This document shows, piece after piece, positions 45,492-47,527 of a stretch of 57,719 bases of DNA. Under the pieces are notes generated by a model. It saw only the letters and a list, made by a program, of their open reading frames with translations, had not been told where the DNA came from and did not search any database. The DNA comes from Bernardetia sp. (lineage in GTDB: Bacteria > Bacteroidota > Bacteroidia > Cytophagales > Bernardetiaceae), in assembly GCF_020630935.1 (NCBI RefSeq), contig NZ_JAHDIG010000027.1:1-57719 (forward strand), in the 5' to 3' direction. Both the position numbers and the translations under genes were made by a program. How positions within the stretch are numbered: the stretch's first letter is position 1; every line of letters begins with the position of its first letter.

Positions 45492-45887
45492 AACTTTAGA
45501 TAGCTTAATTTTATTAAATTATAATTTATGTGTGTTTGTTCCAGTAGAGGTATCATTGCATCAGACCCTACGAGTTTTTACTAATTTGAGGGTCTTGTTT
45601 AAATGTGATGCTTACAAATTTAACAAACTAGAGGCATATTTGGAAATCTAAAATTTTCATAAAACTGTGCTTTTGTAAAGTCTTCATTTTGAGAGGTTTG
45701 TGTTTTTCAATACCTTTTGTATGCTTTTAATCCTATTTTATTCTCTTTTGTTTGGCAGATAGTAAGAAATACAGAAGAGATTTGAACAATGTGTCAGAAT
45801 AAGAAATTATAGACTTTTATACCAAAAAAAGCTATTTTACCCTTTAAAATCTAACTGCTTCAATTTTATTTATCCCCTTTATCAATT
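45492..45887. other. Divergent intergenic region, E1 to GDSL gene
   Basis: 396 bases with no convincing gene. It contains a hairpin repeat at 45563-45595 (AGACCCT with AGGGTCT, 7-bp arms), 72 bases upstream of the E1 start, whose minus-strand end resembles the hairpin upstream of mltG. The rest is AT-rich and must carry two divergent promoters. Confidence 0.55.
45563..45595. repeat. AGACCCT/AGGGTCT hairpin, copy 1
   Basis: Arms AGACCCT (45563-45569) and AGGGTCT (45589-45595). The minus-strand sequence AAAACTCGTAGGGTCT resembles AAAACTCTTAGGGTCT at 48669-48684, one mismatch in 16. It belongs to the same dispersed family. Confidence 0.55.
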
Positions 45888-46786
45888 ATGTTCAAAATAT
45901 TTCCATTCTTTTTATTCTTTGTTTGTACAGTATGTTTAGCTTCTTGTATGACACAGAAATCAGTAGATAAAGACTCTAAAGAAATTGCTAAAATAAATTA
46001 CCTTGCTCTAGGCGACTCCTATACTATCGGAGAAAGTGTAAAAATAAGAGAGCGTTATCCTGTACAGCTTGCTGAAAGAATTGAATTTTTATCAAAAAAT
46101 AATCAAGATAAAAACAAAATTTATTTTGAAGTAGGGTAAACGCACGAAACTTTTTATACTAGCTCACTTAGCTTTAAATAAACTTTACTTGTCAGAGTAA
46201 TATAAATAATCAAAGTAAAAAAGAGCTTCTATTTGATTTAAATGGCTATACTTTTTTTTCGTGCGTTTACCCTAATTTTGAAGAACCCAAAATCATTGCA
46301 AAAACAGGTTGGACATGCGAAGAACTCTTGACAGCGATTCGTTTGGCAGAACAACGAAAAGACTTAAAACAAAAATATGACATTGTATCTCTTCTCATTG
46401 GAGTAAACGACCAATACGATGGAGAAGATAGCACGAAATATGAACAACGTTTTGAAAAACTATTGCAAAAGGCAATTAGTTTGGCTGCAAAAGATGCTTC
46501 AAAAGTATTTGTGATTTCAATTCCAGATTACGGAATGACAGATTTTGCCAAAAGTAAAAATTTGGATACTCAAAAAATAGCTAGTGAGATAGATTATTAT
46601 AATAGAATAAATAAACAGATTTCACTGAAATACAAAGTAAAATATTTTGACATAACGCCAATTTCAAGAAAAGCAGCTCAAGACAAAACGCTCATTGCTA
46701 GTGATGGACTTCATCCTTCTGGGCAGATGTATAAAGAATGGGTAGATTTGATGGCAAAAGACGTGATGAAGATGCTTAACAAATAA
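45888..46786 (+). pseudogene. SGNH/GDSL hydrolase lipoprotein, disrupted by a MITE-like insertion
   Basis: The N-terminal piece (45888-46139, 83 aa) has a lipoprotein signal (CTVCLASC lipobox) and catalytic block I YLALGDSYTIGESVKI. The C-terminal piece (resuming in frame after 46283; its first possible start is the TTG at 46328) carries block III LLIGVNDQYDG and block V LIASDGLHPSGQMYKEW with the Asp and His. Excising 46132-46274 plus one copy of the 9-bp duplication joins the halves in frame as FEEPKIIAKTGWTCEELL, the expected sequence between blocks. The gene probably encoded an envelope-bound esterase and is now unlikely to make an active enzyme. The absence of other lesions suggests a recent event. 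Confidence 0.88.
46132..46274. mobile_element. 143-bp MITE-like element with 18-bp TIRs and 9-bp TSD
   Basis: The ends are perfect inverted repeats: TAGGGTAAACGCACGAAA (46132-46149) and TTTCGTGCGTTTACCCTA (46257-46274). ATTTTGAAG is present directly outside both ends (46123-46131 and 46275-46283), a 9-bp target-site duplication. The interior is AT-rich with no reading frame, so mobility would depend on a transposase supplied elsewhere. A 9-bp duplication is compatible with several insertion-sequence families (for example IS4, IS256, ISAs1); the parent is not identified. No second copy was seen in the window. Confidence 0.9.
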
Positions 46787-46792
46787 AGAATT

Positions 46793-47527
46793 CTAAATCA
46801 GATTAGATTCTAGTCTTTGTTGTTCTAAGTTTTTTTGAAAAAATAGCTTTTTACTATCCAAATCAAAACACAAAAGTTTGCCATAGCCTTGTGCTGCAAA
46901 ATCATAAAAAACTGCTCCATTATCAAGGCAGATAACTTTAGAATTATTTTGTATAGCGTATTGAATATCAATCAGTGGAGTAGGCTGATGTCCAAAGATT
47001 ATGGCTTTAGATTTGGCAAGTTCTTCATCATAAAAAACATCACGTAACCATAACATTTCTTCGAAGTCTTGAAAAGGATTTTCGGCATCGAAATTAAATC
47101 CTGCATGAACCAAAAAATAATCTTCTAACTCAATATAGAAATACAGATTTTTTAAGAATGTGTGATATTTTTCTTCTATCTGTCCTGTATGATGTAGCAA
47201 GTTTTCAAGTTTGTAGGCTTTATGAAAAATAAGAGGATTTTCTGGGTATTCTTCTATACTTTCTAAAAGTGTTTGTTCGTGATTTCCTCGTAGTAAAAAA
47301 ATAGTATATCCTTCTGATTCAAGCCTTAGAATCTCGTCAATTACTCCTTTGCTATCAATACCTTTATCGATATAATCTCCTAAGAAAAACAATACGTCAT
47401 CTTTTGTCAGATTGATTTTTTGGAGTAAAGCACGAAAGGTAGAAGAGCAGCCATGTATATCTGGTATGACTAATCTTCTACCTTTGGTTTGTTTAGAATC
47501 TGTAGCTATTTTGAAAGGAAAATTCAT
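46793..47527 (-). CDS. PPP-type metallophosphoesterase
   Basis: 244 residues. The two-metal phosphoesterase blocks are all present: LVIPDIHGCSSTFRALL, FFLGDYIDKGIDSKGVIDEI, FLLRGNHEQTLLE, FLVHAGFNF and IIFGHQPTPLI, the serine/threonine phosphatase arrangement of the PPP superfamily. Substrates could be phosphoproteins or dinucleoside tetraphosphates (ApaH-like). Its ATG overlaps the mltG stop by one base (TAATG), so it is translationally coupled to mltG. Confidence 0.9.
   Translation of the reverse strand: MNFPFKIATDSKQTKGRRLVIPDIHGCSSTFRALLQKINLTKDDVLFFLGDYIDKGIDSKGVIDEILRLESEGYTIFLLRGNHEQTLLESIEEYPENPLIFHKAYKLENLLHHTGQIEEKYHTFLKNLYFYIELEDYFLVHAGFNFDAENPFQDFEEMLWLRDVFYDEELAKSKAIIFGHQPTPLIDIQYAIQNNSKVICLDNGAVFYDFAAQGYGKLLCFDLDSKKLFFQKNLEQQRLESNLI

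What the first reader, a model, noticed from the sequence alone, without database searches (positions are those of the whole stretch)
46132..46274. 143-bp MITE-like element with perfect 18-bp inverted ends and a 9-bp target duplication
Ends TAGGGTAAACGCACGAAA and TTTCGTGCGTTTACCCTA match perfectly; ATTTTGAAG flanks both sides. There is no reading frame inside, and intact duplication suggests a recent transposition. The ends do not match any insertion sequence that I can name.
Basis: partly seen in the sequence, partly recalled or inferred. Interest (0 to 1): 0.75.

Follow-up and report, generated by a model that had tools for sequence, protein, structure and literature searches.

The report
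ISAs1-driven 143-bp MITE in Bernardetia
A tiny piece of parasitic DNA that cannot move by itself has recently jumped into, and broken, a lipase-like gene of a bacterium, most likely carried there by the enzyme of a larger jumping element (ISAs1 family) that has the same ends.

Summary
The MITE interpretation holds. The same genome has five more full copies (three identical, two 98.6% identical), each in a different exact 9-bp duplication. The family matches in 6 of 7 genomes of the genus (inferred to be Bernardetia), with 87 left ends in one of them, and one copy splits a phage structural gene. The 18-bp end was found in 6 of 390 sampled genomes of the order, all in this genus.

The driver is most likely an ISAs1-family insertion sequence. 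A 1174-bp element with identical 18-bp ends and an ISAs1 transposase (broken by two stops) lies in a sister species. The window's genome has 13 contig ends that look like the two ends of the same kind of IS; two left/right pairs share an exact 9-mer. Its interior is missing from the assembly, so no intact transposase with these ends was seen.

The window copy breaks a GDSL-lipase-like gene; 5 of 5 homologues in the genus lack the insert. This is a new member of a known kind, close in design to MITEAba12. The papers I looked into showed no ISAs1-driven MITE.

The parts
46123..46131 (.). left copy of the 9-bp target duplication ATTTTGAAG
46132..46274 (+). 143-bp MITE (28.7% GC), one of 6 full-length copies in this genome
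46132..46149 (+). left 18-bp terminal inverted repeat TAGGGTAAACGCACGAAA
   Evidence: identical to both ends of a 1174-bp ISAs1-family IS
46150..46256 (+). 107-bp non-coding core, without clear similarity to the IS just inside its ends
46257..46274 (-). right 18-bp terminal inverted repeat, perfect match to the left
46275..46283 (.). right copy of the 9-bp target duplication ATTTTGAAG
45888..46139 (+). 5' part of the broken GDSL-lipase-like gene; the frame runs into the MITE and stops at TAA 46137-46139
46284..46786 (+). 3' part of the same gene (listed as a separate ORF 46328-46786); Pfam Lipase_GDSL_2 E 7.7e-15

Best explanation
The element is a MITE: a non-autonomous miniature transposon of 143 bp. 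It moves when the transposase of a co-resident ISAs1-family insertion sequence binds its 18-bp ends, cuts it out or copies it, and inserts it into AT-rich target DNA with 9-bp staggered cuts, which leaves the 9-bp direct repeat. Shown by sequence: the ends shared with the IS, the duplications, the multiple copies and the empty sites. Inferred: that the genome's own ISAs1 transposase is intact and acts in trans on the MITE, and the chemistry of the reaction. The window copy is a recent insertion that interrupted a GDSL-lipase-like gene.
For: Six full copies in the own genome, four identical, all six with different exact 9-bp duplications. Of 28 distinct full-length elements that I delimited in five genomes and one viral contig, 27 have an exact 9-bp duplication. 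A 1174-bp IS with both 18-bp ends identical to the MITE's carries a transposase matching NCBIfam NF033564 (ISAs1 family), E 5.3e-97 over model positions 1-312 of 314, read through two stops. In the own genome 7 contig ends carry TAGGGTAAACGCACGAAA with one kind of inner sequence, and 6 carry TAGGGTAAACGCATGAAA with sequence 83% identical to the right end of that IS. Of 42 left/right contig pairs, two share an exact 9-mer and a third 8 of 9. Empty site: without the insert and one 9-bp copy the gene is one 248-aa frame that aligns with 5 of 5 uninterrupted homologues. The end TAGGGTAAACGCAYGAAA occurs in 6 of 390 sampled genomes of the order, all in this genus.
Against: No intact transposase with these exact ends was seen in what I searched (7 genus genomes). 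In the own genome the IS interior is missing and the only ISAs1 match is a decayed fragment at C34. The G002 copy has two stops and no target duplication. Just inside the 18-bp ends the MITE does not resemble the IS (at most 8 of 18 positions match at 19-36), so it is not a simple internal deletion of it. Seven of the 13 IS-like contig ends found no duplication partner. G002_b lacks a duplication, and so does the degenerate 128-bp copy at C11. Movement itself was not observed.
Confidence: 0.92

Rival explanations
1. The MITE is driven by a transposase of another IS family that happens to use the same ends.
For: The own genome has three DDE_Tnp_1 matches, none of them at the place of its one ISAs1 match, and no intact ISAs1 transposase is assembled there.
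Against: The only element I saw with the same 18-bp ends on both sides of a transposase is ISAs1 family. The own genome's IS-like ends match that IS at its right end (83% over 52-53 bp) and its left end (13 of 18 positions just inside the repeat).
Confidence: 0.05
2. The element is a conserved functional repeat (structured RNA or regulatory hairpin) kept by selection, and mobility is secondary.
For: It folds far better than shuffles (single-stranded DNA, z -6.5). Length stays 142-144 bp in 26 of 28 delimited elements (the others: one of 160 bp, one of 146 bp with a run of N) although subfamilies are only about 75% identical. Six pairs of the predicted fold changed on both sides and stayed paired, against a shuffle mean of 2.3 (1 of 500 as high) and 1-2 in slid controls.
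Against: 18 of the 42 pairs are the inverted ends themselves. All six double changes come from the two near-identical rows of the window's genome, so they amount to one comparison, and six other inner pairs break in the same two rows (alignment, counts). No Rfam match. Homologous sites of the window copy are empty in relatives.
Confidence: 0.03

Closest known systems
MITEAba12 of Acinetobacter (PMC6382973, abstract and passages seen)
   Same: 113 bp, 16-bp inverted ends, AT rich, no gene, 9-bp duplications, ends shared with a co-resident full-length IS, similarity to the IS confined to the ends, many genomes of one genus, a possible burst, disruption of a host gene.
   Different: Driver is ISAba12 (IS5 family by my recollection); insertion into hns was found in a laboratory strain; ends differ at one position; only 40% of 90 copies had duplications.
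ISAs1-family insertion sequences (passages in PMC11946415: 14-22-bp ends starting CAGGG, 10-bp repeats; PMC6305408: ISArsp11, 1306 bp, ends CAGGGCT..., 10-bp repeat)
   Same: The driver's transposase scores as ISAs1; ends start TAGGG; a sister ISAs1 in G006 (1162 bp) starts TAGGGCAACCGTAC and sits in a 10-bp duplication.
   Different: The MITE has no transposase; its ends start T, not C; its duplication is 9 bp.
BrickBuilt and other MITEs of Porphyromonas gingivalis (PMC4596501, passages seen)
   Same: MITEs of a Bacteroidota species whose ends match or resemble resident IS elements.
   Different: The matching ISs are IS5 family; BrickBuilt contains a minisatellite and its duplications vary in length.

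Membership tests
MITE (non-autonomous miniature transposon) | short (50-1000 bp), AT-rich, no coding capacity | tested here: met
   143 bp, 28.7% GC, no ORF of 60 aa or more inside
MITE (non-autonomous miniature transposon) | terminal inverted repeats and target duplications of constant length | tested here: met
   perfect 18-bp ends; exact 9-bp duplications at 6 of 6 full copies in the own genome and 27 of 28 delimited elements overall
MITE (non-autonomous miniature transposon) | several near-identical copies at unrelated sites | tested here: met
   6 full copies in the own genome; 87 left ends in G005; 28 of 28 delimited elements have different left flanks
MITE driven by an ISAs1-family IS | same ends as a full-length IS of that family | tested here: met
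   18 of 18 bases identical to both ends of the 1174-bp IS in G002
MITE driven by an ISAs1-family IS | the IS makes target duplications of the same length | tested here: met
   two exact 9-bp pairs and one 8 of 9 among 42 pairs of IS-end contigs of the own genome, the rest unpaired; the G002 copy has none; a sister ISAs1 in G006 shows 10 bp
MITE driven by an ISAs1-family IS | intact transposase in the same cell | tested here: inconclusive
   IS interior absent from the assembly; only ends and a decayed relative seen
MITE driven by an ISAs1-family IS | transposition in trans by that transposase | not testable with these tools
   needs a bench assay

The most novel reading that the evidence does not exclude
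The MITE family moves between Bernardetia species, partly on phages, faster than the hosts diverge, and its core is kept at about 143 bp with a conserved fold because the transposase or the host uses that shape. For: in G005 versus G006 the MITEs are on average 94.8% identical, and in G005 versus G002 94.1%, while a housekeeping gene is 89.0% and 89.5% and the interrupted gene 80.3% and 81.0% identical; one copy sits in a phage structural gene. Against: pairs with G001 show no such excess (MITE means 87-90%, housekeeping gene 89-90%); the G000 subfamily (72-77%) is more diverged than the housekeeping gene (85-87%) and about as diverged as the lipase gene (75-81%); two genes are a thin yardstick; the fold evidence is one comparison.
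Probability: 0.18. Interest if true: 0.45.

Novelty: new member of a known kind. Interest (0 to 1): 0.3.

Why it matters
It adds a clean, probably recently active MITE family to a little-studied genus and ties it to the ISAs1 family, for which the papers I looked into showed no MITE. It explains a pseudogene in the window and probably some of the contig breaks in these draft genomes, and it offers a natural substrate (18-bp ends, 143 bp) for studying ISAs1 transposition. For general biology it is ordinary.

Tried and rejected
Rejected: chance inverted repeat (multiple copies). Conserved part of the gene (0 of 5 homologues). Simple internal-deletion derivative of the IS (no clear similarity just inside the ends). 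Known RNA family (none at E up to 1 in 45500-47200). Promoter or terminator carried by the MITE: the simple scan of 45900-46500 found none, but that scan does not cover Bacteroidota promoters. Similar DNA in the phage and plasmid collections: no match. The viral contig as independent evidence of phage spread: G005 contig C408 is 100% identical to it over 3534 and 727 bp on both sides of a short stretch inside the same MITE, so it is the same insertion seen twice, in a phage sequence binned with that organism. ISfinder could not be searched. Fold support for a functional core: inconclusive.

Corrected on checking: I first took C408 to end inside the MITE; it spans it. Confidence was lowered from 0.93 to 0.92 for the unpaired IS ends, rival 1 raised from 0.04 to 0.05 to match, and the novel case lowered from 0.20 to 0.18 for the G001 comparisons.

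Counting notes: the 28 full-length elements were delimited from loci at hand, not from all copies; G005 has 87 left ends but only 10 of its elements were delimited, and only 4 of them are in the alignment. The 28 include one 160-bp element with a largely different core and one with a run of N. The target list holds 27; I left out G002_b (no duplication) before that count. The degenerate C11 copy and truncated matches (L117, L122, L125, L126, L127) were left out of the 28. The in-ORF count is 8 of 27; by hand it is 9 of 27. One search allowed 2 mismatches and missed one diverged G001 copy; its 87 left ends may include doubled or artefactual contig ends. Two of the 11 papers (PMC11298459, PMC11428868) and two of the 3 (PMC6807381, PMC4361730) were not opened; the rest were seen as passages only.

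Full report
Bases 46132-46274 are bounded by perfect 18-bp inverted repeats and flanked by ATTTTGAAG on both sides. In the window the 18-mer occurs nowhere else even with 3 mismatches, and 0 of 100 shuffles gave two matches. No ORF of 60 aa or more lies inside.

Copies in the own genome. G000 (4.75 Mb, 153 contigs) has 6 full-length copies: four identical (C3, C27, C35, C40) and two with the same two substitutions (C6, C88). All six have different, exact 9-bp duplications. A degenerate 128-bp relative (68% identical, no 9-bp duplication) is at C11:26265-26392. Identical copies with intact duplications suggest recent movement.

The driver. The same 18-mer, with up to one mismatch, also occurs singly at 13 contig ends of G000. 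Each holds 49-55 bases of element (the 18-mer included) of one of two kinds, 7 ends of one and 6 of the other. I read these as the left and right ends of a repeated element lost to assembly. In sister genome G002 a complete 1174-bp element, C1:2123020-2124193, has both 18-bp ends identical to the MITE. Its transposase frame, broken by two stops, matches NF033564 (ISAs1 family transposase) at E 5.3e-97, positions 1-312 of 314. Its first and last pieces also match separately (first 172.3 bits; last 63.7 bits, below the cut-off of 70), and Pfam gives DDE_Tnp_1_assoc and DDE_Tnp_1. The 6 right-end contigs of G000 are 83% identical to the right end of this IS over 52-53 bp. The left ends agree with its left end at 13 of 18 positions just inside the repeat. 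Of 42 left/right contig pairs of G000, two share an exact 9-mer next to the ends and a third shares 8 of 9; 4 left and 3 right ends stay without a partner. This supports 9-bp duplications by this IS. The IS interior is not in the G000 assembly; the only ISAs1 match there is a decayed fragment. The G002 copy has no target duplication. A sister ISAs1 in G006 (1162 bp, 372-codon open frame, ends TAGGGCAACCGTAC...) sits in a 10-bp duplication. Passages in two papers describe ISAs1 elements with ends starting CAGGG and 10-bp repeats (PMC11946415; PMC6305408).

Distribution. Named genome contigs with two exact ends at MITE distance are Bernardetia sp. MAG-102 (4 of 13 stretches) and Flexibacter sp. 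CG_4_10_14_3_um_filter_32_15 (9 of 13). Contig lengths and positions equate these with G006 and G005, which the tool places in the window's genus. I therefore infer Bernardetia (Cytophagales). The end TAGGGTAAACGCAYGAAA occurs in 6 of 390 genomes sampled from the order, all in this genus, where 6 of 7 have it. The MITE matches in the same 6 of 7: G004 has only fragments and G003 nothing. G005 has 87 left ends specific to the MITE, against 6, 2, 2, 1 and 6 in G000, G001, G002, G004 and G006 and none in G003 (up to 2 mismatches). Of 28 full-length elements that I delimited, 27 have exact 9-bp duplications and all have different left flanks. The G000 copies form a subfamily 72-77% identical to the rest.

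Targets. Without the element, 8 of 27 insertion points lie in an ORF of 100 aa or more, against a mean of 20.8 (sd 2.0; 0 of 200 draws as low) for random points in the same flanks. The 60 bp around insertions are 25% GC against 32% for the flanks. Either the element prefers AT-rich intergenic DNA or selection removed genic hits; this cannot be separated here. The duplications show a weak preference for T at position 2 (17 of 27) and C or T at position 9 (21 of 27).

The gene hit in the window. The MITE interrupts a GDSL-lipase-like gene (Lipase_GDSL_2, E 7.7e-15 for the 3' part); that it encodes a lipoprotein is my reading of its N-terminus, from no call. The frame stops at 46137-46139, bases 6-8 of the MITE. 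Without the insert and one duplication copy the frame is 248 aa and aligns with 5 of 5 homologues in G002-G006, none of which carries an insert. G001 has no match to this gene.

The phage copy. One stretch in the viral collection holds the exact end; it carries a 144-bp copy with an exact 9-bp duplication. It splits a virion structural gene: the two sides match positions 3-169 and 363-750 of phrog_15220, and the empty-site frame is 942 aa. A neighbouring protein with weak tape-measure matches is 100% identical to one in G005 contig C408, and C408 is identical to the viral contig on both sides of a short stretch within the same MITE. It is one insertion, seen twice. Integration into a chromosome was not shown.

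Horizontal spread is possible, not shown. G005 and G006 MITEs are on average 94.8% identical (24 comparisons) and G005 and G002 94.1% (8), while the gene of the 811-aa ORF (E1-type dehydrogenase by my reading) is 89.0% and 89.5% and the lipase gene 80.3% and 81.0% identical. Pairs with G001 show no such excess, G002 and G006 are close in everything (MITE mean 94.0%, genes 97.3% and 95.9%), and G000 MITEs are more diverged than the dehydrogenase gene and about as diverged as the lipase gene.

Does the core do anything? The strand folds well (z -6.5). In the alignment of 17 copies 95.9% of cells pair (shuffles 93.4%), and 6 pairs changed on both sides (shuffle mean 2.3, 1 of 500 as high; slid controls 1-2). 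But the ends account for 18 of 42 pairs, the double changes all come from the two G000 rows, and six other inner pairs break in those rows. I call this inconclusive.

Literature. Searches for ISAs1 with MITE (11 papers), with 'miniature inverted-repeat transposable' (2) and with 'non-autonomous' (7) gave no ISAs1-driven MITE in the passages I read. Two listed papers were not opened, and the passages of PMC5756416 report three Aeromonas MITEs without saying what drives them, so the absence is not firm. The Anabaena paper lists an ISAs1 element and MITEs that its authors could not match to any IS (PMC3542288). The closest design is MITEAba12. Papers naming Bernardetia (10) or Flexibacter litoralis (9) have no transposon study of this genus in their titles (listings only).

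Verdict: a real MITE, probably recently active, whose driver is most likely an ISAs1-family IS; a new member of a well-known kind.

Noticed in passing
L086 6088-6231 (IMG/VR contig) and G005:C408:7876: A MITE copy splits a phage virion structural gene (phrog_15220); the same insertion is seen in both assemblies.
   Followed up: partly
G005:C422:24600-24687: Two MITE left ends face each other within 88 bp: a left-left palindrome or an assembly artefact.
   Followed up: no
L064:2382-2541 (G001): A 160-bp element with nearly the same ends and an exact 9-bp duplication but a largely different core: possibly a second MITE type of the same IS.
   Followed up: no
L033:1501-1628 (G000:C11:26265-26392): Degenerate 128-bp relative without a 9-bp duplication: perhaps an older generation of the same family.
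   Followed up: partly
L088:1373-2534 (G006:C88): ISAs1-family IS with an uninterrupted transposase frame, ends TAGGGCAACCGTAC... and a 10-bp duplication: a sister of the driver.
   Followed up: partly
G005 (460 contigs): Of 43 MITE left ends on the minus strand, 38 lie within 100 bp of a contig start: the expansion probably contributes to the fragmentation of this MAG.
   Followed up: partly
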